Shown in pieces: positions 8,110 to 22,929 of a stretch of 64,000 bases of DNA. The notes beneath the pieces are model-generated. The model saw only the letters and a program-made list of their open reading frames with translations, ran no database searches and was not told where the DNA came from. Source of the DNA: an uncultured Macellibacteroides sp. (GTDB taxonomy: Bacteria > Bacteroidota > Bacteroidia > Bacteroidales > Tannerellaceae); contig NZ_OY762974.1 in assembly GCF_963667135.1 (NCBI RefSeq), positions 1,612,001-1,676,000 of the forward strand. The letters are read 5' to 3'. Both the position numbers and the translations under genes were made by a program. Each line of letters starts with the position of its first letter. Positions within the stretch are counted from its first letter, which is position 1.

Positions 8110-8709
8110 ATGCGTAAATTAGATTCTCCTGACATAATAATGAGTGATTCCGAATTGTTATCCTTACTTCATTATGATCGTGATAAAGCTTTTACTTTGA
8201 TTTATGAAAAGTATCATAAGTTATTGTATGTGCTTGCTTTTAAGTATTTGAAAAGTTCTTTCATGGCAGAAGATGCTGTTCAATTTGTTTTTTTGAAATT
8301 GCTGGAGACTCATTCGTTGCTATCTGTTTCTGTCAATCTGCGTAATTATTTGTATACTATGCTGAAGAATCATTTACTAAATGAAATACGCAACAATTAT
8401 AATGCGGTTGAAAAAAATTATGAAATGGCCCAGTCAGGATCGGAATACGAAGACGATTTGCTCACTAAAATTGAAGATAAGGATATGATGGACCGGTTGT
8501 ATCTGCTTGTTGAACAGTTACCATTGCAAAAGAAATTAATTTGTCTTTACAAGTTAAAAGATAATCTTTCTAATCAGGAGATTGCAGAAAAAATGAACAT
8601 TTCTGTCGCAACTGTAAAAAGCCACTATACGCAGGCAATCAAAATACTTCAATCAAATTTTGAACTAATGTTGATAATAATTTCAATTGTCAACTCAACC
8701 TATTTTTAA
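8110..8709 (+). CDS. ECF-type RNA polymerase sigma factor
   Basis: This 199-residue sigma-70 family protein is of the extracytoplasmic-function type common beside SusC/SusD genes. Region 2 spans about residues 20-95 (FTLIYEKYHKLLYVLAFKYL, then AEDAVQFVFLKL). Region 4 spans about 130-185 with a helix-turn-helix (LSNQEIAEKMNISVATVKSH). It would direct RNA polymerase to the locus promoters when released by the adjacent FecR-type anti-sigma factor. The tail after about residue 185 is unusually hydrophobic (LMLIIISIV). An alternative ATG lies at 8140. Confidence 0.92.
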   Translation: MRKLDSPDIIMSDSELLSLLHYDRDKAFTLIYEKYHKLLYVLAFKYLKSSFMAEDAVQFVFLKLLETHSLLSVSVNLRNYLYTMLKNHLLNEIRNNYNAVEKNYEMAQSGSEYEDDLLTKIEDKDMMDRLYLLVEQLPLQKKLICLYKLKDNLSNQEIAEKMNISVATVKSHYTQAIKILQSNFELMLIIISIVNSTYF

Positions 8710-8753
8710 TTTCAAGTGTCAATTAATAGGAAACAAAAGAACAAAGTAAAAGT

Positions 8754-9752
8754 ATGATTATGAATATTCCAGATAACGATATAATTGAGAGAACGCTTAA
8801 TAATGAAGCGACACCAGATGAAGCCAAAATGGTTGTTCGCTGGTTTAAAACCAAAGAAGGCCAGTTGTGGCTTTCATCCAGAATTGATGAGGATGAAAAA
8901 TTAATTTTGGAAGGAGAAGAGCATTTTCAGGTTAATCATAAGATTCCATCGGATGTTATTTACAGTAACATCTTAAAACGATTGAAGACACAAAAGTTAA
9001 GGAGAAGAATTTTTCAGGCAGCTGCTTTACTGATACCTTTTATTTTGGTGGCGGCATCGTTCTTTTATGTTAATTCGAAGGTGGATTTATTGGCAGTTAA
9101 CGAATATGATGAGATTTATGTGCCAAAGGGTGAACGTATGCAGGTTATATTTCAGGATGGCAGTAAAGTTTATCTGAACTCTGAGAGTAGAATAAGATAT
9201 CCTCGTAAGTTCGGGTTGAATGAACGAAAAGTGGAATTGGAGGGTGAGGGATGGTTTGATATTGCAAAAAATCCAAATAGACCCTTTATAGTTGATCTGA
9301 ACTGCTTACGGGTTAAGGTTATGGGAACAATTTTCGATGTAAAAGCTTATCCGAATGAAAATGATATTTCTGTGGTATTGGAGAGTGGATCAGTTGAACT
9401 TAAAACTGTAATGTCAAATTCAATTAATATGGTTCCCGGAGATAAAGCCGTTTATAACAGATCGTCAGGTCGTTGCAAAATATTGCATTCTGACAATTAT
9501 AAATTGTCGTCTGCATGGAAGCATAATGTTTTAGTATTTAATAATTCTTCTTTGTCTGATGTGATTAAAACTTTATCAAGAACCTATAATGTAAATTTTA
9601 TAGTTGAAGATTCTGTTGCCCTGAGTTATACTTACACGATTACTACAAATAGTAAGAACCTGGCTTTCCTTCTAAAGGAACTGGAGAAGATTACACCTGT
9701 ACGATTTATTATAAACGAGAACGATATTAGAGTAAAAATGATAAAAAAATAG
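8754..9752 (+). CDS. FecR-type anti-sigma factor
   Basis: This 332-residue inner-membrane protein has a cytoplasmic N-terminal segment that would hold the ECF sigma factor. One transmembrane helix follows at about residues 86-105 (IFQAAALLIPFILVAASFF). A periplasmic FecR domain comes next at about 115-220 (IYVPKGERMQVIFQDGSKVYL, then EGEGWFDIAKN), and a DUF4974-like C-terminal domain at about 255-325. In the FecIR/SusC scheme the C-terminal domain receives a signal from the STN domain of the transporter, which is present in the next gene. A second in-frame ATG lies two codons in (8760). Confidence 0.92.
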   Translation: MIMNIPDNDIIERTLNNEATPDEAKMVVRWFKTKEGQLWLSSRIDEDEKLILEGEEHFQVNHKIPSDVIYSNILKRLKTQKLRRRIFQAAALLIPFILVAASFFYVNSKVDLLAVNEYDEIYVPKGERMQVIFQDGSKVYLNSESRIRYPRKFGLNERKVELEGEGWFDIAKNPNRPFIVDLNCLRVKVMGTIFDVKAYPNENDISVVLESGSVELKTVMSNSINMVPGDKAVYNRSSGRCKILHSDNYKLSSAWKHNVLVFNNSSLSDVIKTLSRTYNVNFIVEDSVALSYTYTITTNSKNLAFLLKELEKITPVRFIINENDIRVKMIKK

Positions 9753-9868
9753 TTGCAACTAATACTCTTTCTTTTGTTGTGTGTCTATTTAATGTATGTG
9801 TTATAAAACGGAATGTTAACCTGTAATTGTTGTCTGCGCAATGAATGATACATCATAATTAATAAAAA

Positions 9869-9898
9869 CAGCCGAAAAACTCTCACATTTTCCGGCTG
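9869..9898 (+). terminator. Hairpin between the FecR and SusC genes
   Basis: CAGCCGAAAA (9869-9878) pairs with TTTTCCGGCTG (9888-9898), with one bulged C. No T-run follows, so it could be an attenuator or processing hairpin rather than a true terminator. It separates regulator genes from the transporter genes. Confidence 0.35.
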
Positions 9899-9946
9899 AT
9901 GGCGTACTGAAATATTATTTCAAATACTTAAAATCAATACAAATAT

Positions 9947-12900
9947 ATGAAAGAAAAACAAATTTGCCCTATTTCCAGGCATATTTTATTATTTATGGAG
10001 AAAATACCTAATGCCATGAAGTCAACCTTCTTATCTTTAGTTTTTTCTTTTCTTAGCGTTACCCTGAATGCAGCTAATCAACATGTATCCATAACTCTGG
10101 AAAACGTGAAAGTCGAGACGATTTTAACAACCATTTCTAAACAAACCGGTCTCTCAATGGCCTATAGTAAACAGATTGTTGATCTCAACCGAATTGTAAG
10201 CATCAATCTTAAAGATGTAGAGGTGGAGAAAGTCCTAGATAAATTGGTGGAAGGAACTTCCCTGGCATATGAAGTGAAAAGTGGGAAAGTCTATTTATTT
10301 GAAAGACGCTCTAACAAAACAAGTTATTCAGAACAACAGCAAAAAAAAGTAACTGGTACCGTAAAGGATGTACAGGGACAGCCCATTATTGGGGCCAATG
10401 TCGTTGAGAAAGGAACATCAAATGGGACAGTAACGGATTATAATGGTAATTTTTCGCTAGAGGTTTCTGAAGAGTCGGTTCTCCTATTTTCTTACATCGG
10501 ATATATTTCTCAGGAATATATTGTTGGTAAAAACACATTGCTTAATGTGAAATTGGCGGAAGATGCCAAAACACTCGAAGAAGTTGTTGTTGTGGGGTAT
10601 GGTACCCAGAAAAAAGGAGAGGTTGCGAGTGCTATTTCAAGTATAAAATCGGAGAATTTTATCAAAGTTCCTTCTCCGGATGCTGCTCAGTTAATCAGAG
10701 GTCAGGTGGCTGGTTTGAGTATTATTTCCAAGGATGCGAATCCTACATCAACTTCCGAAATCTCATTACGAGGTATTACAACGTTAAAATCGAGCGCAAG
10801 TCCTTTGGTGCTGGTTGATGGTATCCCAGCTGATCTGAATTCTGTTTCTCCTGATGACATTCAACAGATTGATGTTTTGAAGGACGGATCTGCAGCTGCT
10901 ATCTATGGAACCCGTGGAACGAATGGTGTAATTTTGATTACTACCAAAAATGCAAAAGGAGAAATGCCTACAAAGGTTGATTTTAATGCTTACTTGTCTA
11001 CTCAGCAGATCACAAAGAGACTGGATTTTATGAATACTAAACAATATAGGGCGAAAGTGGCCGAGGGTATTCCAGGTGCGCAGGATGACGGTGATAATGT
11101 AAACTGGTTAGATGAGGTTATGAGAACTCCTTTTACGCAGGTTTATAATTTAAGTCTAAAAGGGGGAAGCAAGTCTACCAATTATACAGCAAGCTTTGAA
11201 TATAGAGGATTGAATGGATTGATAAAACGTACAAATAATCAAATGATTTATCCTCGTATAGAAATTTCGCACCGTATGTTAGATGACAAGTTGAAACTGA
11301 CTGCCAGTCTGAGCGGATACAAGCAAAGTTACTTTTCCGGTTCTGATGGAGGAAGTTACAATTCGGCTATTTATAGAAATGCTTTAACATTCAATCCAAC
11401 AACGCCACTTAAGGATGCGAACGGAAGTTGGTCTGAAAGTCCTTCTAAAACAGATTATTTTAATCCGGTTGCTTTGCTGGAAGAAGTTGAAGGAGAAAAT
11501 CAAGCAACAAGTCTAAGAATGTTTGCAACGGCTATTTTTACTCCGATAAAAGGATTGGATATTAAATACCTTGTTTCTTCCAATACATATAATCAGGCGA
11601 GAGGATATTACGAAACCCAACAGCATATTTCCACTATAAAAGATGATAAGAATGGATATGCTTCCAGAGGTACTACCCGAAATACAGAAGATCTGACAGA
11701 GCTTACTGTTCAGTGGAACAAAATCTTGTTTGAAGATCACACTTTCACCCTCCTTGGAGGCTATAGTTGGTTTAAAAGGAATTACCAAAACTACTATATG
11801 CAGAACTTTGATTTCCCATCGGACGATTATACTTATAACAACATAGGTTCAGGTTCTGCATTAACAAAAGGGCGAGGAACGGAATATTCTTACCAAAGTG
11901 AAAATAAGTTGTTAGGCTATTTCGGGCGTTTTAATTATAGCTTCCGAGGTAAATACATGTTATCTGCTAGTATTCGTCATGAAGGGTCTTCCAAGTTTGG
12001 AGCGAATCAGAAGTGGGGTACTTTTCCGGCTGTCTCTGCTGCCTGGAATATCAAATCGGAGGAGTTTCTTAAGAATATCAACAAGTTAAGCAGTTTAAAA
12101 TTGCGTGCCGGTTTTGGTGTAACTGGAACGGAACCTTCAGATCCATATATGTCTCTTAATACATTGAGCTTCTCTACATATGTTTATTATAACGGAGCGT
12201 GGATTAAAACTGTTCGCCCTGCTTCCAATTCGAATCCAGATTTGAGGTGGGAGCGTAAGGAAGAGACAAACATTGGTCTTGACTTTGGTTTTATGGATGA
12301 TCGCATCACGGCTACTGTAGATTTATATAATCGTAAAACGAAAGATTTGTTATGGGATTATACAGTTCCTTCGCCTCCTTATTTGTATTCGAGTATGACA
12401 GCTAATGCCGGTTCTATGCGAAATCGGGGAATTGAGGCTTCTGTAACAGTAATTCCTGTTAAGACTGAGAACATACAGTGGATTACTTCTGTAAATTATT
12501 CGACGAACAGTAATAAGCTTCTTTCTTTATCAAATGACAAGTTTGTATCCAGCGGTTATTCGGACCAGGGAAATACTGGTGAACCGATTCAGCAGACTAC
12601 CCATCGTATCCAGGAAGGTGAATCAATTGGCAATTTCTATGGATTCAAGAGTATAGATATTGATGAAAATGGTCACTGGATTATCGAAGGTGAAGACGGA
12701 ACAGCAAAGCCTATCTCTCAACAACAGCCTACTGACAAAAAAGTGATTGGAAATGGATTGCCTAAACATTATCTGAACTGGAACAACACAGTGATGTATA
12801 AGAATATCGATTTTACGTTAACTATGCGTGGAGCATTTAAATTTGATATTTTGAACATGGCGGAATTGCAATACGGGCAACCTGTTATGCTTTCGAGAGG

Positions 12901-13225
12901 AAATATTCTTAACAGTGCTTTTGATAAAGTGTATGGTAAAGTAAGATTGGCAAATGATCAGGAACTTCAATATGTGAGTTATTATATTGAAAAAGGGGAT
13001 TATTGGAAAATTGATAACATGACTTTAGGTTATACGCTTGACTTCAAAACATCATGGATTGACAAACTAAGAGTGTATGGAACCGTTTCCAATTTGGCTA
13101 CGTTTACTGGTTATACCGGTATCGATCCGGAAGTTAGTATCAGTGGTCTGAATCCTGGTTGTGACGATAAAAATCGTTATCCGGCAGCAAGAACATTTAC
13201 CGTTGGATTATCCGTTAATTTTTAA
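9947..13225 (+). CDS. SusC/RagA family TonB-dependent transporter with STN domain
   Basis: This 1092-residue outer-membrane glycan importer has an N-terminal signal segment (about 26-42). An STN signalling domain follows at about 47-118 (ISLENV-type repeats, here ITLENVKVETILTTISKQTG). A carboxypeptidase-regulatory domain sits at about 136-210 (VTGTVKDVQGQPIIGANV). The TonB box-like EEVVVVGYGTQKKGEV follows, then the plug (LVLVDGIPADLNSVSPDDI) and a 22-strand-type barrel ending in FTVGLSVNF. The STN domain implies it signals to the upstream FecR protein. Start choice is uncertain: ATGs at 9947, 9995 and 10016 all precede the signal sequence. The SusD partner begins 12 bp downstream. Confidence 0.95.
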   Translation: MKEKQICPISRHILLFMEKIPNAMKSTFLSLVFSFLSVTLNAANQHVSITLENVKVETILTTISKQTGLSMAYSKQIVDLNRIVSINLKDVEVEKVLDKLVEGTSLAYEVKSGKVYLFERRSNKTSYSEQQQKKVTGTVKDVQGQPIIGANVVEKGTSNGTVTDYNGNFSLEVSEESVLLFSYIGYISQEYIVGKNTLLNVKLAEDAKTLEEVVVVGYGTQKKGEVASAISSIKSENFIKVPSPDAAQLIRGQVAGLSIISKDANPTSTSEISLRGITTLKSSASPLVLVDGIPADLNSVSPDDIQQIDVLKDGSAAAIYGTRGTNGVILITTKNAKGEMPTKVDFNAYLSTQQITKRLDFMNTKQYRAKVAEGIPGAQDDGDNVNWLDEVMRTPFTQVYNLSLKGGSKSTNYTASFEYRGLNGLIKRTNNQMIYPRIEISHRMLDDKLKLTASLSGYKQSYFSGSDGGSYNSAIYRNALTFNPTTPLKDANGSWSESPSKTDYFNPVALLEEVEGENQATSLRMFATAIFTPIKGLDIKYLVSSNTYNQARGYYETQQHISTIKDDKNGYASRGTTRNTEDLTELTVQWNKILFEDHTFTLLGGYSWFKRNYQNYYMQNFDFPSDDYTYNNIGSGSALTKGRGTEYSYQSENKLLGYFGRFNYSFRGKYMLSASIRHEGSSKFGANQKWGTFPAVSAAWNIKSEEFLKNINKLSSLKLRAGFGVTGTEPSDPYMSLNTLSFSTYVYYNGAWIKTVRPASNSNPDLRWERKEETNIGLDFGFMDDRITATVDLYNRKTKDLLWDYTVPSPPYLYSSMTANAGSMRNRGIEASVTVIPVKTENIQWITSVNYSTNSNKLLSLSNDKFVSSGYSDQGNTGEPIQQTTHRIQEGESIGNFYGFKSIDIDENGHWIIEGEDGTAKPISQQQPTDKKVIGNGLPKHYLNWNNTVMYKNIDFTLTMRGAFKFDILNMAELQYGQPVMLSRGNILNSAFDKVYGKVRLANDQELQYVSYYIEKGDYWKIDNMTLGYTLDFKTSWIDKLRVYGTVSNLATFTGYTGIDPEVSISGLNPGCDDKNRYPAARTFTVGLSVNF

Positions 13226-13236
13226 AATAGAAACAT

Positions 13237-14853
13237 ATGAAAACATATATAAAACTATTTATCGCGTTGCTTTTCGCTAGCACAACCATTTCTTGCAGTG
13301 ATAATTTAGATGAGAATGTATATTCGTCGGTTACAGAGCAAAGTTATAAATATACGTCAGCCGATTTTGATCCAGCTGTTTCCAGTGTTTACTCTTATCT
13401 TAGATCACTTATTTCTCATGGAGGTTACTGGCAGGCGCAAGAGGTGACTGCTGATGGAATTGTGATGCCTCCTAACGCATCAGGATGGGATGATGGAGGA
13501 ATTTACCGCAGAATGCATTATCATACGTGGAATTCTGAACAAGCGCATATTTCATCTATGTGGTCAGCTTTTTATAGAGGAGTTATTTTGTCGAATCAAG
13601 TAATAGAGCAGATTGAAACAGATAAAATTCCGGCTCTCTCGGCAAATGATAAGACTGCAGGTCTTGCCGAACTAAGGGCTGCAAGAGCATTCTATTATTG
13701 GTTGATTTGTGATAATTTCGGGGATGCACCTCTGGTGACTGCTACTGGTACGGATTTGCCAGAAAAAAGCACAAGAAAGCAAATTTATGATTTTATTGTA
13801 AGTGAACTGAATGAAGTAATACCTTCGCTTAGTGAAGTTCAGGGCGGCACATCGTATGGACGGATGAATAAATGGGCTGCCAAAGCACTTTTGGCAAATG
13901 TATATCTGAATGCGGAAGTATATGTAGGTGAACCCCATTGGGCTGATTGTATTATTCAATGTAATGATATTATAAACAGTACCAAGTGCGATCTTTCTGC
14001 TAATTACAGTGATCCATTCCGGACAGTGGGAGTGGAGACTTCGAAAGAAATTATATTTACGATTCCATTTGATGAAAAATTAGCTGGAGGAAATAGTATT
14101 CACATGTTTTCATGGCATGGTGAACTTAAAAAGAAATATGAAACTGAAGCGACTCCTTGGGGAAGTGGTTCGGCTATGGGAGTCACTCAATTTATAGACA
14201 CCTATGATACGGAAGACTCACGTCTTGCAGATACATGGCTAATGGGGCCCCAATATGCAGCTAATGGAACATTGTTGTTAGGAACTTATGATATGAAAGG
14301 AGAGCCTCTGAATTTTACAAAGGATATACCAAGTGGCAACTATACGAAGGAGGCTGAAGGCTACCGAATGAATAAATACGAGATTGTAAAAGGGGCTCAG
14401 GGTTCATCTAGTACTGATGTTCCATTGTTCCGCTACTCTGAGGTGTTACTAATGAAAGCGGAATGCCTTTTGAGGACTGGTGCCCCTGGCGCCGGAGAGT
14501 TGGTTACGCAAGTGAGAAGGCGGGCGTTTAAGGATAATCCAGACAAAGCCGTTGTTACTGATGCGCAGCTGTTGGAAAACAGTTCATACCAATACGGATA
14601 TGTGGAGGACTATAAGATTGTTGATAAAGGAAACACTGATCCAATTTTGTATGGCAGGATGTTGGACGAGCTAGGTTGGGAGTTTGCTTGGGAAATGCAC
14701 AGACGAAGAGATATGATTCGTTTTGGTGTATATACGAAAAAAAGTTGGTTGTCTCATAAACCACAGGGAGAGTATCGTAAACTATTCCCGATTCCTGAAA
14801 GTGTAATTACGTCAAATCCAATGCTGACACAGAATCCTGATTATTCCAATTGA
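13237..14853 (+). CDS. SusD/RagB family nutrient-binding lipoprotein
   Basis: This 538-residue surface lipoprotein has a lipobox TTISC (Cys20) and the helical TPR-like SusD fold. Signatures include LAELRAARAFYYWLICDNFGDAPLV and the C-terminal FPIPESVITSNPMLTQNPDY. It forms the lid over the SusC barrel and captures the glycan. SusD sequences are poor predictors of substrate; the neighbouring GH127-like genes suggest an arabinofuranose-containing glycan. Confidence 0.95.
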   Translation: MKTYIKLFIALLFASTTISCSDNLDENVYSSVTEQSYKYTSADFDPAVSSVYSYLRSLISHGGYWQAQEVTADGIVMPPNASGWDDGGIYRRMHYHTWNSEQAHISSMWSAFYRGVILSNQVIEQIETDKIPALSANDKTAGLAELRAARAFYYWLICDNFGDAPLVTATGTDLPEKSTRKQIYDFIVSELNEVIPSLSEVQGGTSYGRMNKWAAKALLANVYLNAEVYVGEPHWADCIIQCNDIINSTKCDLSANYSDPFRTVGVETSKEIIFTIPFDEKLAGGNSIHMFSWHGELKKKYETEATPWGSGSAMGVTQFIDTYDTEDSRLADTWLMGPQYAANGTLLLGTYDMKGEPLNFTKDIPSGNYTKEAEGYRMNKYEIVKGAQGSSSTDVPLFRYSEVLLMKAECLLRTGAPGAGELVTQVRRRAFKDNPDKAVVTDAQLLENSSYQYGYVEDYKIVDKGNTDPILYGRMLDELGWEFAWEMHRRRDMIRFGVYTKKSWLSHKPQGEYRKLFPIPESVITSNPMLTQNPDYSN

Positions 14854-14873
14854 TTCTTTGTTAATCCATTTTG

Positions 14874-14903
14874 GCAGAAGGGGTAAAAACTTGCTCCTTC
14901 TGC
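14874..14903 (+). terminator. Intercistronic hairpin after the SusD gene
   Basis: GCAGAAGG (14874-14881) pairs with CCTTCTGC (14896-14903). No T-run follows. It lies in the 194-bp gap between the SusD gene and the SGNH gene and could reduce or process read-through into the carbamoylation block. Confidence 0.35.
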
Positions 14904-15047
14904 TAAATCGATAAATCTTATAATGTAAAGACTTATCATATTACTATTTGTGCTCTGCGAAAACAAGAATGAAATATATACTAAAAGTAAGGATTTTCTC
15001 TAAATGTATAAAAGGCGGATTGTGATTATAGCAGGCTGATTGAATTA

Positions 15048-16646
15048 ATGAACTTTATGAAAAAAATCTGGATACATAAAATATTGGCCTTTATGCTACC
15101 ATTCTTTTTATTGGGAATGGCTGAGCTTGTTTTGCGTGTGTGTAAGATTGGCTATAATACGCAATTGTTTATACCGGCTGCAGATGAGCGGTTCTATGTT
15201 ATGAATCCAGATGTCTCTGCTAAGTATTTTACCATTGGAGAGAATGCAACGATTGGTAATCAAGATCTATTTTTCAAAAAGAAGCCTTCGGGAACATTAC
15301 GTTTTTTTGTATTGGGAGCTTCTTCTTCTCTCGGTTTTCCTTATATGTATAACGGTTGTTTTGCCCGTATGCTTAAGTATCGATTACAATTTACTTATCC
15401 TCATACAAACATAGAGATTGTTAATTTGTCTCTAACGGCGATTAATAGTTATACATTATATGATTTTTCCAGACAATTGATCGATTATGAACCTGACGGA
15501 GTGTTGGTGTACGCTGGTCAGAATGAGTTTTATGGCGCATTGGGTGTTGCCTCGTCCAGTAAATTTGCCCGCAATGTTTATGTGACACGTCTTATTCTGG
15601 CTGCTAAAGAGTTTAGATTAATTCAGTTACTTAATATAATCGTTAATAAATTACACGGAACACGAGGTGAGTTGATAAATAAGGATCATACGTTGATGGA
15701 AAGGATGGCTGACCGTAAAATGGTTCCATATAATTCACAACTATATGAAGATGGGATAGTGCAGTATAGAACGAATATGGAGGATATGATTTCATTATTT
15801 AGTCAACATCGGATTCCTGTTTTTATAGGAACATTGGTTAGTAATATGAAAGATCAGGAACCTTTTGCTCACTCCGATTCTGATTCGTTGAACGCATGGA
15901 AAGAATATACATTGGGCGATTCATTGTTCGTGATAAAAAATTACCAAAAAGCTAAAGTGCATTTTGAGATGGCAAAAGAGTATGACAAGCTTAGGTTTCG
16001 TGCGCCAAGCGTATTTAATGGTATTATTCAATGGCTAGCACATAAATATCCCAATGTTTATGTTGTCGATGTTGAGAAGGCATTTAAAAAGAAATCTGTA
16101 GGTGGTATTATCGGCAATGAATTGCTTTTGGAGCATGTGCATCCCAACCTTGCCGGACATCGGATAATGGCGGATAATTATTTTGAAATCATTAAAGATA
16201 ATTATTTGGACAAACAAAGTGTGGAAGAGAAGGGCTTCGATTTGAAGGAGGAAGATTATCCTTATACGGCTTTTGATACTATTTGTGGTGATATTTCAAT
16301 CAGGCAATTAAAACAACAATGGCCTTTTAATGAAACTCCACAAGTAATTAAAACTGATACGAATACTATTGAATATAAAATGGCGCAAAAATATAAAAGA
16401 AGAGAAATTAACTGGGGCCAGGCTATGCAACGGTTGAATAATAAATACATTCAAAGAGAAGATTACAAGAACGCTTTGAGAGTAATTGAACAGATGTGCC
16501 TTGATGTTCCATATGAAATAATGTTTGTAAGTCAGGCTGCTCGCTTGTCTGGCTTATTAGATTTGCAGGAGAAAGCGCGTTTTTATTCTAATAAAGAAAT
16601 AGAATTGATGCAACTACTAGATACACCCACTTATAATGGTAAATAA
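15048..16646 (+). CDS. Membrane-anchored SGNH/GDSL-like hydrolase
   Basis: This 532-residue protein has one N-terminal transmembrane or signal-anchor helix at about residues 12-30 (ILAFMLPFFLLGMAELVL). An SGNH-type domain follows: block I is VLGASSSLGFP (Ser nucleophile context), block III is YAGQNEFYG, and the C-terminal catalytic His is in EHVHPNLAGH, where the usual Asp of DxxH is Glu. The last 120 residues are helical and may carry TPR-like helices. Such proteins add or remove ester groups on envelope glycans. Here it precedes SxtJ-like, SxtK-like and carbamoyltransferase genes, so it may act on the same glycan or metabolite (inference). Confidence 0.8.
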   Translation: MNFMKKIWIHKILAFMLPFFLLGMAELVLRVCKIGYNTQLFIPAADERFYVMNPDVSAKYFTIGENATIGNQDLFFKKKPSGTLRFFVLGASSSLGFPYMYNGCFARMLKYRLQFTYPHTNIEIVNLSLTAINSYTLYDFSRQLIDYEPDGVLVYAGQNEFYGALGVASSSKFARNVYVTRLILAAKEFRLIQLLNIIVNKLHGTRGELINKDHTLMERMADRKMVPYNSQLYEDGIVQYRTNMEDMISLFSQHRIPVFIGTLVSNMKDQEPFAHSDSDSLNAWKEYTLGDSLFVIKNYQKAKVHFEMAKEYDKLRFRAPSVFNGIIQWLAHKYPNVYVVDVEKAFKKKSVGGIIGNELLLEHVHPNLAGHRIMADNYFEIIKDNYLDKQSVEEKGFDLKEEDYPYTAFDTICGDISIRQLKQQWPFNETPQVIKTDTNTIEYKMAQKYKRREINWGQAMQRLNNKYIQREDYKNALRVIEQMCLDVPYEIMFVSQAARLSGLLDLQEKARFYSNKEIELMQLLDTPTYNGK

Positions 16647-17004
16647 AGATATTAACAGAGAGGTGGGAATTATTTTGTCTGTTTTGACTTTAGTTCTAAA
16701 CGAATATTGGCAAATATGTTGGAAAGAAATACTTTTCGTAATTCTAATTCTTTCTTTATTGGTTCCAGTAGTTTTTTCTCCTATTAGCAGGTTATTATTA
16801 TTCGTTGGAGAATTTATGGGCAAGTGGGTGACTGTTGTGCTTCTTTTTATTACTTTTTTCTTAGTTGTAACACCCCTGGCCTTTATTCGCCGTTACGTAT
16901 CTAAAGACAGTTTGTTGATTCGTGAGTTTAAGAATGGATCCGAAAGTGTTTTTCTTAAAATGGAGAGAACTGCTGATTCTAAAGATTTGAAGAAACAATA
17001 TTAA
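16636..17004 (+). CDS. SxtJ-like membrane protein
   Basis: This 122-residue protein has about three hydrophobic segments (about residues 8-20, 31-58 and 63-85) and a charged C-terminus. Length, helix pattern and position before a DUF5989-like gene and a NodU/CmcH carbamoyltransferase match SxtJ family membrane proteins, first noted in cyanobacterial saxitoxin clusters, whose function is unknown. It overlaps the SGNH gene end by 11 bp. A membrane partner or anchor for the carbamoyltransferase is a reasonable inference. Confidence 0.7.
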   Translation: MVNKDINREVGIILSVLTLVLNEYWQICWKEILFVILILSLLVPVVFSPISRLLLFVGEFMGKWVTVVLLFITFFLVVTPLAFIRRYVSKDSLLIREFKNGSESVFLKMERTADSKDLKKQY

Positions 17005-17015
17005 TAATAAAAGAT

Positions 17016-17168
17016 ATGATGGATTTTATTAAAGAATTTTTCAGTTTTGTAGTGGAACGGAAAAAATATTGGATTATACCTTTGATAATTATATTATTAT
17101 TGCTTTCTGTTGTGATAACACTTTCTCAAGGTACTGCTTTGGCGCCTTTTATCTATTCAATCTTTTAG
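17016..17168 (+). CDS. DUF5989/SxtK-like 50-residue membrane protein
   Basis: This small gene runs from ATG at 17016 (or the adjacent ATG at 17019) to TAG at 17166-17168. The product starts MDFIKEFFSFVVERKKYW, continues as one hydrophobic helix (about residues 19-36), and ends SQGTALAPFIYSIF. That layout (FIKEFxxF, then ERKKxWxxP, then a helix, then the QGSALAPFIY-type end) is the one I recall for DUF5989 proteins, which sit next to SxtJ and carbamoyltransferase genes. It lies 11 bp after the SxtJ-like gene and 4 bp before the carbamoyltransferase. It is easily missed by length cut-offs. Function unknown. Confidence 0.8.
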   Translation: MMDFIKEFFSFVVERKKYWIIPLIIILLLLSVVITLSQGTALAPFIYSIF

Positions 17169-17172
17169 TAGT

Positions 17173-18966
17173 ATGACTGTTATTCTGGGAATATCGGCTT
17201 TTTATCATGATAGTGCTGCTGCACTTGTTATTGATGGGGAGATTATCGCAGCAGCGCAGGAAGAGCGTTTTACAAGGTGTAAGAATGACGCTTCTTTTCC
17301 AACCCATGCTATAAGTTATGTTCTTCGTGAAGCAGGCTTAACAGGCGAAAACGTTGACTATGTGGCGTTTTATGAAAAGTCGTTTCTTAAGTTCGAACGC
17401 ATACTTGAAACTTACTATGCATTTGCTCCCAAAGGCATTGTTAGTTTTGTAAAATCAATTCCTTTATGGATGAAAGAAAAACTATTTGTAAAGCAGCATA
17501 TAATAAGTGAATTAAAGGCAATGGATATTAAATCTTTGGTTTTATTCCCTGAACATCACTTATCACATGCAGCAAGCGCTTTTTACCCTTCACCTTATGA
17601 GGATGCTTGTATTTTAACAGTTGATGGAGTAGGAGAATGGGCAACCACTACCATTGGAAAAGGTAAAGGTAATAAAATTACATGTTTGAGAGAAATTCAT
17701 TTTCCTCATTCATTAGGCTTATTTTATTCGGCATTTACCTACTACTGTGGTTTTAAAGTTAATGGAGGGGAATACAAATTGATGGGGCTTGCTCCTTATG
17801 GGCAATATTCTCAACAAGCAATGGATTACATTCGGTTAATTAAAGAACATCTTATTGATATTCGTTTGGATGGCTCTTTTTTGCTTAATATGAATTATTA
17901 TAATTATGCGACAGGATTAACTATGACGAATGATAAATTGTGGAAAAAAATTTTCAATGTTCCTCCTCGCAAACCGGAAAGTGATATCTCACAACCATAT
18001 ATAGATCTTGCTTTTGCTGCACAGTTCGTTATCGAGGAAGTGATGTTAAAGTTAGCCCATACAGCTAAAGAGCTTACAAATTCGGATACGCTTGTAATGG
18101 CTGGGGGGGTAGCTTTAAATTGTGTTTCCAACGAAAAACTTTATAACAGCCGTCTTTTTAAACATATTTGGGTCCAGCCTGCATCTGGTGATGCGGGTGG
18201 TGCTGTAGGAGCGGCTTTGGCTATCTGGCATACTTTTTTGAATAATAAACGAATTGTAAACAAGAAAGATGGAATGAGCAATACTTATTTGGGTCCTTCA
18301 TTCTCTCAAAGATGTGTTGATATTTTGATTCGTAATAAGGATGCTCATGCTGAATTGCTTTCCGAAACTGATTTACTTCAGAAAGTATCTGTTCTTTTAA
18401 GAGACGGCGCCATTGTGGGATGGTTTCAGGGTCGGATGGAGTTCGGCCCGCGATCTTTGGGAAACAGATCTATCCTTGCTGATCCAAGAGCTGAGGGGAT
18501 GCAGAAAAGATTAAATTTAAAAATCAAGTTTAGAGAAAGTTTCAGACCTTTTGCCCCATGTATTCTGGAAGAAGATGTGTCTAACTATTTTGAGAGAACA
18601 GGGCCATCGCCATACATGTTGTTTACAACAGGTCTTCTACCAGAATTAAGAAAACAATTGCCTGAAAACTACAAACAGCTTACTTATTCAAATAAGCTTT
18701 ACGCTGCACGTTCTGCTCTGCAGGCTGTAACACATGTGGATTTCTCTGCCAGGATTCAAACAGTATCAAGAGAAAATAATTCTTTATTGTACGACTTGCT
18801 GAGAGCTTTCAAAACAGAAACTGGTTGCGGCATATTAGTCAATACGAGTTTTAATGTGAGAGGGGAACCAATTGTTTGTAATCCTGAAGATGCCTATAGT
18901 TGTTTTTGCAATACTGGAATGGATTATCTTGTTATTGGAAATTATCTGTTTTCAAAAAACAAATAG
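17173..18966 (+). CDS. NodU/CmcH/SxtI-type O-carbamoyltransferase
   Basis: This 597-residue enzyme uses carbamoyl phosphate and ATP to make a carbamoyl-adenylate and transfers the carbamoyl group to a hydroxyl. The N-terminal Kae1-like part starts ILGISAFYHDSAAALV (His12-Asp13). The metal-site His pair is His128 and His132 in EHHLSHAASAF, and a further ligand is Asp340 in ASGDAGGAVGAAL. The C-terminal domain has WFQGRMEFGPRSLGNRSIL and NTSFNVRGEPIV. All expected catalytic motifs are intact. The acceptor is unknown; neighbours suggest an envelope glycan or imported sugar. Finding it inside a SusCD locus is unusual. Confidence 0.93.
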   Translation: MTVILGISAFYHDSAAALVIDGEIIAAAQEERFTRCKNDASFPTHAISYVLREAGLTGENVDYVAFYEKSFLKFERILETYYAFAPKGIVSFVKSIPLWMKEKLFVKQHIISELKAMDIKSLVLFPEHHLSHAASAFYPSPYEDACILTVDGVGEWATTTIGKGKGNKITCLREIHFPHSLGLFYSAFTYYCGFKVNGGEYKLMGLAPYGQYSQQAMDYIRLIKEHLIDIRLDGSFLLNMNYYNYATGLTMTNDKLWKKIFNVPPRKPESDISQPYIDLAFAAQFVIEEVMLKLAHTAKELTNSDTLVMAGGVALNCVSNEKLYNSRLFKHIWVQPASGDAGGAVGAALAIWHTFLNNKRIVNKKDGMSNTYLGPSFSQRCVDILIRNKDAHAELLSETDLLQKVSVLLRDGAIVGWFQGRMEFGPRSLGNRSILADPRAEGMQKRLNLKIKFRESFRPFAPCILEEDVSNYFERTGPSPYMLFTTGLLPELRKQLPENYKQLTYSNKLYAARSALQAVTHVDFSARIQTVSRENNSLLYDLLRAFKTETGCGILVNTSFNVRGEPIVCNPEDAYSCFCNTGMDYLVIGNYLFSKNK

Positions 18967-19017
18967 ATAAATGAAATTGAAAATATAAATAAAGTAGTAA
19001 TCATTTAAATCATTATC

Positions 19018-20871
19018 ATGAAACAGTTTGTATTAGTGTCGTTAGCTAGTTTAGCTTTGTTAACATGTCAGAAACTGGAGGGAGAAACGCCTCTTAAAAT
19101 GGTTGAACAGGTAGATTTCTCTCATGTTCATATTCAGGATAAATTCTGGTCTCCACGATTAGAAAAACATATCACGGCTACCTTGCCGGTTTGTATAGAT
19201 CAAATAGAGAATCAAACTGGTCGCATGCAGAATTTTGTGAATGCAGCCAAACAATCAGGAAAACATTCGGGAATATTTTTTGATGATTCAGATGTGTATA
19301 AAGCACTGGAGGGAATGGCTTATGCATTGATAAATCACCCAGATGCCAATCTTGAAAAAAAGGCGGATGAGTGGATTGCTAAAATTGCCTCCGCTCAGCA
19401 ACCCGACGGGTATATAAATACGTACTATACGCTAACCGGACTTGATAAGCGGTGGACAAATATGGACAAGCATGAGATGTATTGTGCTGGTCATATGATT
19501 GAGGCGGCAGTTGCTTATTATAGAGCTACTGGTAAGCGGACGCTATTAGATGTAAGTATTCGTATGGCGGATCATATGATGAATGTTTTTGGTCCGGATA
19601 AACGTCATTGGGTACCAGGACATGAAGAGATTGAATTGGCTTTGGTGAAATTATTCCAGGTAACCAAAGATAAAAGATACCTGAATTTCTCAAACTGGTT
19701 GTTGGAAGAAAGAGGACATGGTCATGGATCAAAAGGAGATGAGGGTAAATGGGAACCTATCTATTATCAGGATGAGAAACCAATTCGTGAAATGACAGAT
19801 ATTGCAGGTCATGCTGTTCGTTGTATGTATTTGTATTGTGGTATGGCAGATGTCGCTGCTTATAAAAATGAAACAAGCTATATTGTTGCCATGAATCGTT
19901 TATGGGATGATGTAGTGTTGCGGAATATGTATATTACAGGAGGAATAGGTTCTTCAAAGCATAATGAAGGTTTTACCGAAGATTATGATTTGCCTAACAA
20001 AGATGCTTATTGTGAAACTTGTGCGTCGGTAGGTATGGTATATTGGAATCAGCGCATGAATCAGTTTACGGGTAATTCAAAGTACGTTGACGTTTTGGAG
20101 CGTTCGATGTATAATGGGGCTCTGGCAGGTATTTCCTTGTCTGGCGACAGATTTTTCTATGTGAATCCGTTGGAGGCTGATGGCTCTCACCACCGCAAGG
20201 CGTGGTATGGCTGCGCTTGTTGTCCAAGTCAAATTTCCCGGTTCCTTCCTTCAATTGGCAATTATATTTATGGAACTTCTAAAGAGGCTGTCTGGGTTAA
20301 TCTTTATATTGGTAATAGAACTGAAATTCCAATGGATAATGGTACTCTTCTTGTTGAACAGGAAACTAATTATCCTTGGGATGGTAATGTTAAATTAAAG
20401 ATTACCTCTCCCAAAGGGTTGGATAAAGAATTCCGTTTGCGAATTCCGGGATGGTGCAAAAAATATTCTATTAAAGTGAATGATGAAAAATTTAATGCGC
20501 CGGTTGAGAATGGGTATGCCGTTATTAACAATAAATGGAAAACAGGTGATGTAATTGTTTTTAAAATGGACATGGATATTCAAGTGGTTGCTGCGGACGA
20601 AAGAGTGAAAGAAAATGTAGGGAAACGTGCCATCCAAAGGGGACCTATTGTTTACTGTTTGGAAGAAGCCGACAATAAAGACAGCTTTGACAGGGTGGCT
20701 ATTTCTCCGAAAACTACCTTTAAAAGTAAGTTTGAGTCCAATTTTCTTGATGGTGTTACCTCAATTGAGGCTGCCAATAAAGATCAAAAGTTTCTGTTGA
20801 TTCCTTACTATGCATGGGACAACAGAGAGGCTGGGAAGATGAAGGTATGGATTGATTATAAAACGAATTAA
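19018..20871 (+). CDS. GH127 family beta-L-arabinofuranosidase, lipoprotein
   Basis: This 617-residue enzyme matches the GH127/DUF1680 family, which removes beta-L-arabinofuranose using a zinc-bound Cys nucleophile. The expected zinc site is present: Glu333 and Cys335 (CETCASVGM), and Cys401-Cys402 (GCACCPSQISR), with Cys401 aligned to the nucleophile. Other family marks are FDDSDVYKALEGMAY and QPDGYINTYYT. The N-terminus looks like a lipoprotein signal with LLTC (Cys17), so it is probably membrane-anchored. It lies 51 bp after the carbamoyltransferase, probably in the same operon. Specificity within the family (GH127 or a sister family) is not certain. Confidence 0.9.
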   Translation: MKQFVLVSLASLALLTCQKLEGETPLKMVEQVDFSHVHIQDKFWSPRLEKHITATLPVCIDQIENQTGRMQNFVNAAKQSGKHSGIFFDDSDVYKALEGMAYALINHPDANLEKKADEWIAKIASAQQPDGYINTYYTLTGLDKRWTNMDKHEMYCAGHMIEAAVAYYRATGKRTLLDVSIRMADHMMNVFGPDKRHWVPGHEEIELALVKLFQVTKDKRYLNFSNWLLEERGHGHGSKGDEGKWEPIYYQDEKPIREMTDIAGHAVRCMYLYCGMADVAAYKNETSYIVAMNRLWDDVVLRNMYITGGIGSSKHNEGFTEDYDLPNKDAYCETCASVGMVYWNQRMNQFTGNSKYVDVLERSMYNGALAGISLSGDRFFYVNPLEADGSHHRKAWYGCACCPSQISRFLPSIGNYIYGTSKEAVWVNLYIGNRTEIPMDNGTLLVEQETNYPWDGNVKLKITSPKGLDKEFRLRIPGWCKKYSIKVNDEKFNAPVENGYAVINNKWKTGDVIVFKMDMDIQVVAADERVKENVGKRAIQRGPIVYCLEEADNKDSFDRVAISPKTTFKSKFESNFLDGVTSIEAANKDQKFLLIPYYAWDNREAGKMKVWIDYKTN

Positions 20872-20886
20872 TATTAGTAGGTTGAC

Positions 20887-22929
20887 ATGAAAAAAATACT
20901 ATTACTTATTTTTTCTGTTTTAATCGTTTTTCCTGCAATTAGCGCTTCGGAAAAAGATAAAGGTGATAATCGCATTAATTATCTTAATAACCGGTATCCA
21001 TTGATAAGAAAACCTTATGTTAAGCTACCTTTGGGTTCGATTAAACCAAAAGGTTGGATGCTGGAACAACTCAAGCTTATGCAAGAGGGAATGACTGGTA
21101 ATCTGGATAAGGTTTATGAAATGGTTATGGGTAAAAGAAACGGATGGTTAGGAGGAGATGGTGATGTTTGGGAACGGGGGCCTTATTGGATTGACGGATT
21201 ATTGCCCTTGGCATATATTCTTAACGACCAAGCATTAAAGGATAAAGTAAAACCTTGGATTGAGTGGTGCCTGGCTTCTCAAAAAGAGAACGGTTACTTT
21301 GGTCCTGATACTGACAGAGCCAATGAACCAGGTCTTCAAAGGAATAATGCGCATGATTGGTGGCCTAAAATGGTTATGCTTAAAGTGATGCAGCAGTATT
21401 ATTCGGCTACCGGAGATGCACGTGTAATTGGTTTTTTAACAAAATATTTTAAATATCAGCTGGAACAATTACCTGTAAATCCGTTGGATAAATGGACTTT
21501 CTGGGGTGCTCAGCGTGGCGGAGATAATTTGATGATTGTGTATTGGTTGTATAATATTACTGGGGACAAATTTTTACTTGATCTGGGGGAACTTATCCAT
21601 AAACAGACATTTAACTGGACGGATGTCTTTTTGCATCAAGATCATTTGTCGCGCCAGCTCAGCATGCATTGCGTGAATCTTGCTCAAGGTTTTAAGGAAC
21701 CCGTGATTTATTATCAACAGAATAAAAATACGGAACAAATCGCCGCGGTTAAAAAGGCTGTCCGAGATATGCGCCATACGATTGGGTTACCAACTGGTCT
21801 ATGGGGTGGAGATGAGCTGCTCAGATTTGGAAATCCTACGTTAGGTTCCGAATTATGTACTGCTGTGGAAATGATGTTTTCTTTAGAGGAAATGCTGGAA
21901 ATAACAGGTGATATTCAGTGGGCTGATTATTTGGAACGGATAGCTTATAATGTGCTTCCTACTCAGGTAACGGATGATTATTCCTCGCGTCAGTATTTTC
22001 AGCAAGTAAATCAGGTTTCTGTAACAAGAGACTGGAGGGATTTTGTTACACCTCATGATGATACTGATTTGCTGTTTGGTAAATTGACTGGGTATCCTTG
22101 TTGCACGTCGAATTTGCATCAGGGATGGCCTAAACTGGTGCAAAATTTGTGGTATGCCACAGATGATAATGGTGTTGCCGCATTAGTTTATGCACCTTCT
22201 GAGGTGACAATAAAGGTTTCAAATGGAGTGCAAGTGTGTGTTAAAGAAGATACGGGGTATCCTTTTGAGGAAAGAGTGCGTTTTCAGTTTGAATTTGTTG
22301 ATATGAAAATTAAAAAATCATTCTTCCCATTCCATTTCCGTATTCCTGCATGGTGTACCAGTCCGGTAGTTTCCTTAAATGGACAGGTTATTCCTGTTGA
22401 TGTTTATTCCGGCGAAATCGCAAGGATTAACAGAGAATGGGTTAATGGCGATGTACTGAGTGTTGAGCTTCCGATGCATGTCGATGTTAGTTACTGGTTC
22501 GATGGTGCGGCTGTAATTGAGCGAGGTCCTTTGCTCTATTCTTTAAAAATGGAAGAAAAATGGGTAAAGAAACCAGTTGAAAAGAATTCGGATAATAAAT
22601 ATGGGAATTGGTATTATGAAGTTACATCCAATTCTCCGTGGAACTATTCGTTGCTTAGTAATTCGCTGAAGAAGGATAGTATTGGACAGAATTTTGTTGT
22701 AGAAAAAAAGTCAACTATAGCTTCTTATCCTTGGAATACAGAGAATGCACCCATTACTATCCGAACCAAAGGACGACGAATTCCTGGATGGCAGTTATAT
22801 AGAGGGTCGACAGGTTCAATTCCGTTTTTTACCCAACAAGGGAAGGATTATTTAGAGAATGAAGAGGAGGTTGAGCTTATTCCTTATGGTTGTACAACCC
22901 TTCGTATTACTGAGTTCCCTATCCGGTAG
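20887..22929 (+). CDS. Second beta-L-arabinofuranosidase-domain (GH127-like) protein
   Basis: This 680-residue secreted protein has a cleavable-type signal peptide (about residues 1-20). An all-helical (alpha/alpha)6 barrel follows, then a beta domain containing FRIPAWC and IERGPLLYSLKME. The Cys/zinc pattern of the GH127 group is kept in altered form: Glu322-x-Cys324 (GSELCTAVEMMFS) and Cys405-Cys406 (YPCCTSNLHQGWPK). It is clearly diverged from the preceding enzyme, so substrate may differ. It starts 15 bp after the first enzyme and ends just before a strong terminator, as the last gene of the locus. Confidence 0.85.
   Translation: MKKILLLIFSVLIVFPAISASEKDKGDNRINYLNNRYPLIRKPYVKLPLGSIKPKGWMLEQLKLMQEGMTGNLDKVYEMVMGKRNGWLGGDGDVWERGPYWIDGLLPLAYILNDQALKDKVKPWIEWCLASQKENGYFGPDTDRANEPGLQRNNAHDWWPKMVMLKVMQQYYSATGDARVIGFLTKYFKYQLEQLPVNPLDKWTFWGAQRGGDNLMIVYWLYNITGDKFLLDLGELIHKQTFNWTDVFLHQDHLSRQLSMHCVNLAQGFKEPVIYYQQNKNTEQIAAVKKAVRDMRHTIGLPTGLWGGDELLRFGNPTLGSELCTAVEMMFSLEEMLEITGDIQWADYLERIAYNVLPTQVTDDYSSRQYFQQVNQVSVTRDWRDFVTPHDDTDLLFGKLTGYPCCTSNLHQGWPKLVQNLWYATDDNGVAALVYAPSEVTIKVSNGVQVCVKEDTGYPFEERVRFQFEFVDMKIKKSFFPFHFRIPAWCTSPVVSLNGQVIPVDVYSGEIARINREWVNGDVLSVELPMHVDVSYWFDGAAVIERGPLLYSLKMEEKWVKKPVEKNSDNKYGNWYYEVTSNSPWNYSLLSNSLKKDSIGQNFVVEKKSTIASYPWNTENAPITIRTKGRRIPGWQLYRGSTGSIPFFTQQGKDYLENEEEVELIPYGCTTLRITEFPIR

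What the first reader, a model, noticed from the sequence alone, without database searches (positions are those of the whole stretch)
15048..18966. SxtI/J/K-like carbamoylation block inside a SusCD locus
Four consecutive genes encode a membrane-anchored SGNH hydrolase, an SxtJ-like membrane protein, a 50-residue DUF5989/SxtK-like protein and a complete NodU/CmcH-type carbamoyltransferase. They sit between SusD and two GH127-type enzymes. SusCD loci are degradative; a carbamoyltransferase with small membrane partners is biosynthetic or decorating. Possible readings: the cell carbamoylates an envelope glycan or an imported sugar, or uses a membrane-bound carbamoyltransferase complex as part of sugar uptake. 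The overlapping or very short gaps (11 bp overlap, 11 bp, 4 bp) argue for one complex. I know of no described system with this content.
Basis: partly seen in the sequence, partly recalled or inferred. Interest (0 to 1): 0.78.

Follow-up and report, generated by a model that had tools for sequence, protein, structure and literature searches.

The report
Carbamoyl relay inside sugar-uptake locus
Four neighbouring genes probably form a membrane relay that hands a carbamoyl group from the cell interior, via a tiny membrane protein with a conserved tyrosine, to an enzyme outside the inner membrane that places it on a sugar polymer; this resembles the known acetyl and D-alanine relays but seems to work without their usual membrane enzyme.

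Summary
An SGNH protein, an SxtJ-like membrane protein (J), a DUF5989 microprotein (K) and a NodU/CmcH-type carbamoyltransferase (CT) lie in one apparent operon between SusCD and two GH127 genes. The set has a precedent: published sxt clusters carry sxtI/J/K plus the GDSL gene sxtL. New is a proposed mechanism. K ends FIYSIF; 156 of 158 relatives end FIYxxF, and all 158 keep the tyrosine. This is the acyl-shuttle hexapeptide of DltX and PatA: 16 of 16 MBOATs read from K-bearing genomes share it, 0 of 972 other small membrane ORFs do. K is predicted C-out, and the SGNH protein keeps its catalytic residues. CT occurs in 129 of 132 K-bearing Bacteroidota genomes; 13 of 30 examined have no MBOAT match. 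Best reading: an MBOAT-free carbamoyl relay, CT(+J) to K-tyrosine to SGNH-serine to an extracytoplasmic glycan. How carbamoyl crosses the membrane, and the acceptor, are not shown. The SusCD link is recurrent but local: 4 of 80 Bacteroidota K loci have SusD nearby, yet SusC-SusD-SGNH adjacency recurs in several clades. New variant of a known kind, inferred from sequence only.

The parts
8110..8709 (+). ECF sigma factor of the SusCD locus
   Evidence: Pfam Sigma70_r2 and Sigma70_r4_2
8754..9752 (+). FecR-type anti-sigma factor
   Evidence: Pfam FecR and FecR_C
9947..13225 (+). SusC/RagA TonB-linked outer membrane protein
   Evidence: TIGR04056 740 bits against cut-off 368
13237..14853 (+). SusD lipoprotein
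   Evidence: PF07980, PF14322
15048..16646 (+). SGNH protein with N-terminal membrane anchor; proposed final carbamoyl transferase to the acceptor outside the inner membrane
15321..15323 (+). codon of proposed catalytic Ser92 (block I G-x-S)
   Evidence: 57 of 57 in A2
16636..17004 (+). J, SxtJ-like small membrane protein; proposed membrane partner of CT
   Evidence: 60 of 61 rows of A1 match PF19588, this one does not; model with helices 4-25, 30-42, 44-87, pTM 0.60; J fused to the CT C-terminus in L073, L075, L079
17016..17168 (+). K, DUF5989 / SxtK-like transmembrane microprotein; proposed carbamoyl shuttle
   Evidence: PF19451 78.7 bits; C-out by charge in 158 of 158 relatives
17148..17165 (+). 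acyl-shuttle-type C-terminal hexapeptide FIYSIF (Tyr47 codon 17154-17156)
   Evidence: FIYxxF at the exact C-terminus in 156 of 158 relatives; 16 of 16 MBOATs read share it
17173..18966 (+). CT, NodU/CmcH/TobZ-type O-carbamoyltransferase; proposed source of the carbamoyl group
   Evidence: PF02543 + PF16861; aligns to TobZ, GdmN and other solved carbamoyltransferases; H128, H132, D151, D340, R427, R454, R458, N557 conserved in at least 95% of 119 rows
19018..20871 (+). GH127 beta-L-arabinofuranosidase-type enzyme, lipobox-like N-terminus
   Evidence: PF07944 369 bits; nearest solved 6ex6, 4qjy, 3wkw; N-terminus printed
20887..22929 (+). distant GH127-type enzyme
   Evidence: PF07944 112 bits, PF20736 60 bits

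Best explanation
The four genes encode an MBOAT-free carbamoyl relay. CT makes an activated carbamoyl group in the cytoplasm from carbamoyl phosphate and ATP (inferred from its family). Held at the membrane by J, it loads the tyrosine (Tyr47) in the C-terminal FIYSIF of the single-span microprotein K (inferred). K plays the part of DltX: it hands the carbamoyl group to Ser92 of the membrane-anchored SGNH protein (inferred), which transfers it to a hydroxyl of a glycan on the outer face of the inner membrane or in the periplasm. In this locus the genes sit in an ECF-sigma/FecR-led SusCD-GH127 operon, so the modification is probably made when the cell meets the SusCD ligand; the acceptor is most likely either the captured arabinofuranosyl-type glycan or one of the cell's own envelope glycans. 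Shown by sequence: the genes, the motif, the predicted topology, the conserved catalytic residues, the K-CT co-occurrence and K+ genomes without an MBOAT match. Not shown: any catalysis, an acyl-tyrosine, how carbamoyl crosses the membrane, and the acceptor.
For: (a) K ends FIYxxF exactly at the C-terminus in 156 of 158 loci and has Tyr with Phe or Trp three residues on in all 158; in K ORFs of 50 or more residues A-P-F-I-Y is the most conserved stretch. The motif equals the published acyl-shuttle motif FXYXXF of DltX, FIYSSF of CjPatA and FIYANF of NgPatA (PMC12148441, passages). (b) Internal control: of 16 MBOATs that I read from K-bearing genomes (16 of 32 listed rows, mostly the stronger ones), 16 end FIYF[QR]F; of 972 other ORFs of 40-70 codons with a hydrophobic span in the loci, many of them surely not genes, 0 end FxYxxF; among 21,080 ORFs only 3 besides K do, one of them an MBOAT. 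(c) K has a mean of 5.0 Lys/Arg before its span and 0.13 after, more before than after in 158 of 158, so the hexapeptide is predicted outside. (d) 129 of 132 K+ Bacteroidota genomes have a CT; 33 CT+ genomes lack K over cut-off; 230 of 395 lack both (not corrected for kinship). Where one locus lacks CT it is found elsewhere: G874 has SusCD-SGNH-J-K-GH127 without CT and a 65% identical CT on another contig. (e) 13 of 30 K+ genomes, chosen by me mainly for few contigs and seven of the 13 in one contig, have no MBOAT match. (f) Within 7 genes of K, either strand: CT 120, J 120, SGNH 101 of 158 loci. (g) J is fused to CT in three loci. (h) SGNH catalytic residues are invariant in 57 of 57 relatives. 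(i) CT keeps conserved motifs of solved O-carbamoyltransferases.
Against: No experiment. MBOATs carry the acyl group through the membrane; CT is a soluble-type enzyme and J is small with no conserved His or other obvious catalytic residue, so the membrane-crossing step has no known agent. K does not match a DltX profile (only DUF5989 listed). The closest solved folds listed for the SGNH protein are mainly esterases; PatB or DltD are not among the rows shown. 57 of 158 K loci have no SGNH within 7 genes and 21 have none of the three partners. 3 of 132 K+ genomes show no CT (G049, whose K has an internal stop, G312, G334; assembly gaps not examined). A short motif of four fixed residues in a hydrophobic protein could also be a docking motif with no acyl transfer.
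Confidence: 0.6

Rival explanations
1. CT carbamoylates a lipid-linked or soluble sugar in the cytoplasm; J and K only tether it to the membrane, and the SGNH protein is a separate esterase (the published proposal for SxtL is decarbamoylation).
For: Published proposals for SxtI (with SxtJ, SxtK) and SxtL (PMC2679770; PMC2885083; passages). Closest folds of the SGNH protein are esterases. CT and J stand together even where no SGNH is near (32 of 158 loci have CT and J but no SGNH within 7 genes).
Against: Does not explain why the C-terminal hexapeptide of K, predicted outside, is its most conserved part and equals the acyl-shuttle motif, nor the SGNH-K pairs without CT or J at the locus (L071, L085, L088, L091, L117).
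Confidence: 0.22
2. K and SGNH form an ordinary acyl shuttle loaded by an MBOAT encoded elsewhere (acetyl or similar); the carbamoyltransferase is a separate step.
For: MBOATs occur in 17 of 30 K+ genomes, including this one, and one locus has an MBOAT beside SGNH, K, J and CT (L177).
Against: 13 of 30 K+ genomes have no MBOAT match; the 16 MBOATs read carry their own hexapeptide; K tracks CT, 129 of 132.
Confidence: 0.07
3. On context, not excluded by the best explanation: the block lies in the SusCD operon by chance or hitch-hiking and has nothing to do with the imported glycan; it decorates the cell's own envelope.
For: Only 4 of 80 Bacteroidota K loci have SusD within the fetched stretch of up to 20 kb. 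The whole locus is accessory: SusD, K and CT gave no match in the two other genomes of the genus (one of them is 92% complete in 210 contigs). Of nine related SusCD loci at 41-70% SusD identity 7 lack the block. I computed no chance expectation for SusD proximity, which is not small in SusD-rich genomes.
Against: SusD-SGNH order recurs on one strand with short gaps (36-192 bp in L035, L059, L064, L084, L113); SusD within 8 kb needs at least 8 changes on the CT tree; two of nine SusD relatives at 41-70% from a search that did not select for K carry the block or most of it, against none of 11 at 33-40%.
Confidence: 0.4
4. On context: the carbamoyl relay serves uptake itself: incoming oligosaccharides are carbamoylated in the periplasm to trap or mark them (a reading close to the first reader's).
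For: Co-operon with SusCD and GH127 and, in other loci, GH3, GH31, GH43 or GH92 genes nearby.
Against: I know of no precedent; carbamoylation would cost carbamoyl phosphate and ATP per unit; most K loci are not in such operons.
Confidence: 0.12

Closest known systems
sxtI-sxtJ-sxtK-sxtL part of cyanobacterial saxitoxin clusters
   Same: Same four kinds of gene: carbamoyltransferase (1839 bp), two small genes of unknown function (405 and 165 bp) and a GDSL gene (1281 or 1278 bp) (PMC2679770 Table 2, passage).
   Different: There they are read as tailoring a small molecule, with SxtL as a decarbamoylase; here they sit in a SusCD-GH127 operon and the SGNH protein is longer (532 aa). The sxt proteins were not compared by sequence here.
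Dlt pathway (DltB-DltX-DltD)
   Same: A membrane microprotein with an extracellular C-terminal FXYXXF links a loader to an SGNH transferase (PMC12148441, passages).
   Different: No MBOAT and no carrier protein; a soluble-type carbamoyltransferase plus J instead; K does not match a DltX profile.
PatA-PatB and other MBOAT-SGNH acetylation systems
   Same: C-terminal FIYxxF whose Tyr carries the acyl group and an SGNH partner; MBOATs of K-bearing genomes have the same ending (16 of 16 read).
   Different: [quoted passage not shown] here it is a separate 50-residue protein.
NodU/CmcH/TobZ/GdmN O-carbamoyltransferases
   Same: Two domains with conserved residues.
   Different: Those act on small molecules or Nod factors without membrane partners (recalled); this one comes with J and K and can be fused to J.
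Bacteroidota polysaccharide utilisation loci with GH127
   Same: ECF sigma, FecR, SusC, SusD, GH127.
   Different: The inserted relay genes; in a second locus of G874, of the same family, a sulfatase stands between SusD and the GH127b relative instead (L232).

Membership tests
SxtI/J/K/L-type carbamoylation set | two-domain NodU/CmcH-type carbamoyltransferase | tested here: met
   PF02543 298.9 bits, PF16861 236.4 bits
SxtI/J/K/L-type carbamoylation set | SxtJ-family membrane protein: window protein matches PF19588 | tested here: not met
   no such match up to E = 1
SxtI/J/K/L-type carbamoylation set | SxtJ-family membrane protein: aligned homologues match PF19588 | tested here: met
   60 of 61 members of A1, up to E = 1, best 4.5e-18
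SxtI/J/K/L-type carbamoylation set | DUF5989 microprotein next to CT and J | tested here: met
   PF19451 78.7 bits
SxtI/J/K/L-type carbamoylation set | sxtK itself belongs to DUF5989 and ends FIYxxF | not tested
   sxt sequences were not fetched; only the gene length (165 bp) was read
SxtI/J/K/L-type carbamoylation set | GDSL/SGNH protein in the set | tested here: met
   [not shown]
MBOAT-SGNH / Dlt acyl-shuttle systems | C-terminal FxYxxF hexapeptide | tested here: met
   FIYSIF; 156 of 158 relatives FIYxxF
MBOAT-SGNH / Dlt acyl-shuttle systems | hexapeptide on the extracytoplasmic side | tested here: inconclusive
   predicted by charge in 158 of 158; no experiment
MBOAT-SGNH / Dlt acyl-shuttle systems | membrane-anchored SGNH protein with catalytic Ser, Asn, Asp/Glu, His | tested here: met
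   57 of 57 at S92, N159, E/D362, H365; hydrophobic helix within residues 2-31
MBOAT-SGNH / Dlt acyl-shuttle systems | MBOAT loader in the system | tested here: not met
   none among the ten genes 8110-22929 scanned except K (short) and the others named; no MBOAT match in 13 of 30 K+ genomes
MBOAT-SGNH / Dlt acyl-shuttle systems | block II Gly of the SGNH protein replaced, as in PatB | tested here: inconclusive
   the position that I match to block II is Ala in 53 and Gly in 4 of 57, but that match rests on a recalled TesA motif, not on a structural superposition
MBOAT-SGNH / Dlt acyl-shuttle systems | structure closer to PatB or DltD than to esterases | tested here: inconclusive
   esterases fill most of the rows shown; a family that is not listed is not excluded
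MBOAT-SGNH / Dlt acyl-shuttle systems | covalent acyl-tyrosine intermediate | not testable with these tools
   needs mass spectrometry
DltX family | match to a DltX profile | tested here: not met
   hmmscan of K against Pfam-A lists DUF5989 only, up to E = 1; that Pfam holds a DltX family is recalled
Polysaccharide utilisation locus | SusC-SusD pair with regulator and glycoside hydrolases | tested here: met
O-carbamoyltransferase (TobZ-like) | conserved metal-site and carbamoyl-adenylate-site residues | tested here: met
   H128, H132, D151, D340, R427, R454, R458, N557 in at least 95% of 119; the assignment of these to the TobZ sites is recalled

The most novel reading that the evidence does not exclude
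A third class of transmembrane acyl-transfer machine, beside MBOAT-SGNH and AT3-SGNH: a soluble-type carbamoyltransferase with a small membrane partner charges a DltX-like microprotein, so that bacteria O-carbamoylate glycans outside the inner membrane. One loader can serve several K-SGNH pairs encoded elsewhere, some of them in SusCD operons, and DUF5989/SxtK and the SGNH/SxtL-type protein get a first function.
Probability: 0.5. Interest if true: 0.88.

Novelty: new variant of a known kind. Interest (0 to 1): 0.76.

Why it matters
DUF5989 and SxtJ are small families for which I found no tested function. DUF5989 occurs in 132 of 395 sampled Bacteroidota genomes, and record titles name at least eight other phyla, many as MAGs. 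If K is a carbamoyl shuttle, these families gain a precise, testable role; the acyl-tyrosine relay would extend beyond MBOAT and AT3 enzymes and beyond acetyl and D-alanyl groups; and extracytoplasmic O-carbamoylation of glycans would become predictable from genomes. It would also question the published assignment of the GDSL protein of the sxt set as a decarbamoylase. How carbamoyl would cross the membrane with no MBOAT is itself a sharp new problem.

Tried and rejected

AlphaFold of a natural J-CT fusion: MAFFT placed the separate J rows on the CT part, so alignment A3 was not folded; J alone was folded instead and has no PDB match of weight (best E 4.0).

SGNH profile against PDB sequences: the rows shown are mostly TPR proteins, because relatives have a longer C-terminal repeat part; not informative for the catalytic domain. 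PatB and DltD do not appear in the listed fold rows, which excludes nothing. The J profile search found 3,724 proteins among capped candidates; the 120 listed are about 138 residues long, and I did not look further for J-K fusions.

MBOAT near K as the loader: one locus has one by a single-seed search (L177), so rejected as the general loader. The hydrophobic residue before the catalytic His was considered and dropped as not discriminating.

K-only loci (21 of 158): in L046 and L158, the two I looked into, neighbours are ParB, DUF5683 and GNAT genes, a ParA-type gene (L046) and, by the cluster representative from L062, FtsX/MacB-type permeases; no clue to a substrate.

Literature: DUF5989, 0 papers; carbamoyltransferase + MBOAT + SGNH, 0; at least 3 of carbamoyl, microprotein, SGNH, O-carbamoyl, 0; carbamoyltransferase + SusC + polysaccharide utilization, 3 listed, not read. 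Only the open-licence PMC library was searched; the 2023 paper on DltX that I recall is not held, so its content rests on PMC12148441.

L111-L190 are 80 of 136 listed places, mostly one per genus, sites close to a contig start left out; some stretches are shorter than 20 kb. The SusC and SusD profiles were grown from the window's own proteins and may miss distant ones. The SusD search scored at most three candidates per genome; I fetched 20 of its listed places, best first and mostly one per genome; L240 and L244 are short, and G039 has its K about 13 kb from the SusD, outside the stretch L241. L234 entered the CT tree through that search. The CT tree is FastTree only. K-CT association is not corrected for kinship.

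Full report

HOW WIDESPREAD. Over-threshold DUF5989 occurs in 132 of 395 Bacteroidota genomes and 31 of 198 genomes of the window's order. A scan of named genomes brought in 79 loci whose titles name Bacteroidetes, Gemmatimonadetes, Verrucomicrobia, Ignavibacteriae, Zixiibacteriota, Calditrichaeota, Spirochaetes, Acidobacteria, a Clostridia species and Proteobacteria. In 158 loci with a K call (78 named, 80 Bacteroidota), CT lies within 7 genes in 120, J in 120, SGNH in 101. In three Verrucomicrobia loci J is fused to the C-terminus of CT.

THE MOTIF. K ends FIYSIF. Of 158 relatives 156 end FIYxxF at the exact C-terminus; the other two end FIYSIW and LIYTIF. In the K ORFs of 50 or more residues A-P-F-I-Y is the most conserved stretch. 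This is the acyl-shuttle hexapeptide: DltX FXYXXF; CjPatA FIYSSF, where the acetyl group was mapped to Tyr455 and in part to the next, non-conserved Ser, and loss of the Tyr abolished labelling; NgPatA FIYANF, which as an acetylated peptide donates to PatB (PMC12148441: abstract, passages and section 7). As an internal control I read 16 MBOATs from K-bearing genomes (16 of the 32 listed rows): 16 of 16 end FIYF[QR]F. Of 972 other small ORFs with a hydrophobic span in the loci none ends FxYxxF; of 21,080 ORFs only three besides K do, and one is an MBOAT. Charges put the K C-terminus outside in 158 of 158.

WHO LOADS IT. In the known MBOAT-SGNH systems an MBOAT does. Here 13 of 30 K+ genomes that I picked, seven of the 13 in one contig, have no MBOAT match. 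By contrast 129 of 132 K+ genomes have a CT, 33 genomes have a CT without K over cut-off, and 230 neither. Natural splits agree: G874, of the window's family, has SusC-SusD-SGNH-J-K-GH127 with no CT and a 65% identical CT elsewhere; L117 of G251 and four Larkinella loci have SGNH-K pairs in SusCD loci without CT or J near, and G251 has two CTs elsewhere; the Larkinella genomes were not searched for a CT. I infer that CT, with J, is the loader and can act in trans. J has no conserved catalytic residue (only Trp54, absent in the window, Leu70 and Pro80 reach 90% of 106) and no known fold, so how carbamoyl reaches a tyrosine outside is the weak link of the model.

WHO UNLOADS IT. The SGNH protein has Ser92, Asn159, Glu/Asp362 and His365 in 57 of 57 relatives; in a wider set of 98 Ser, Asn and His are at 97, 92 and 97%. 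PatB differs from esterases in lacking the block II Gly; the matching position here is Ala in 53 of 57, but my matching rests on a recalled motif. Closest solved folds are esterases, so hydrolase and transferase cannot be told apart by fold.

THE SUSCD CONTEXT. In the Bacteroidota set SusD lies in 4 of 80 loci, SusC or a related TonB receptor in 20 of 80; in the named set, chosen by similarity to the window's K, 22 and 27 of 78. On the CT tree SusD within 8 kb marks 19 of 119 rows and needs at least 8 changes, and SGNH follows SusD directly on the same strand at 36-192 bp in L035, L059, L064, L084 and L113, as in the window (194 bp). Starting instead from SusD in 395 genomes of the class, SGNH-J-K (with or without CT) is present in 2 of 9 relatives at 41-70% identity (L231, L234) and 0 of 11 at 33-40%. 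I computed no chance expectation. Thus the link is recurrent but local. In a second locus of G874 a sulfatase stands between SusD and the GH127b relative. GH127a is nearest to solved GH127-type enzymes.

WHAT IS KNOWN. The four kinds of gene occur together in saxitoxin clusters as sxtI, J, K, L; SxtJ and SxtK are listed as unknown and SxtL is proposed as decarbamoylase from its GDSL homology (PMC2679770, PMC2684587, PMC2885083: passages). I found no paper that links DUF5989, or a carbamoyltransferase together with MBOAT and SGNH, to acyl shuttles (open-licence library only).

VERDICT. By its anatomy the system works like the Dlt/PatAB relays but fails the membership test on the MBOAT, so I file it as a new variant.

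Noticed in passing
L073:6866-9079, L075:7651-9855, L079:7700-9979: J is fused to the C-terminus of the carbamoyltransferase in three Verrucomicrobia loci.
   Followed up: partly
L177:14358-15839: An MBOAT ending FIYFQF lies in the same locus as CT, SGNH, K and J, so two acyl-shuttle loaders may sit side by side.
   Followed up: partly
L046, L158 and other K-only loci: Solitary DUF5989 gene next to parB, DUF5683 and related housekeeping genes, with no CT, J or SGNH within 7 genes; what this K serves is unknown.
   Followed up: partly
L045:6265-8271, L049:5939-7822: Wzy_C/O-antigen-ligase protein with TPR repeats directly after K in two Verrucomicrobia loci, which hints at a glycan acceptor.
   Followed up: no
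L091:2682-6574 and similar Larkinella loci: SusCD locus with a PQQ dehydrogenase and an enolase-superfamily enzyme ahead of an SGNH-K pair, without CT or J.
   Followed up: no
L232:5483-14188: Related SusCD-GH127b locus of G874 with a sulfatase in the place of the relay genes.
   Followed up: no
window 30709-31809, minus strand: CE2-type carbohydrate esterase with a GDSL domain, about 8 kb beyond the locus.
   Followed up: no
L047: Parabacteroides MAG with the same gene order as the window but frame breaks in SGNH and CT, possibly low-coverage errors.
   Followed up: no
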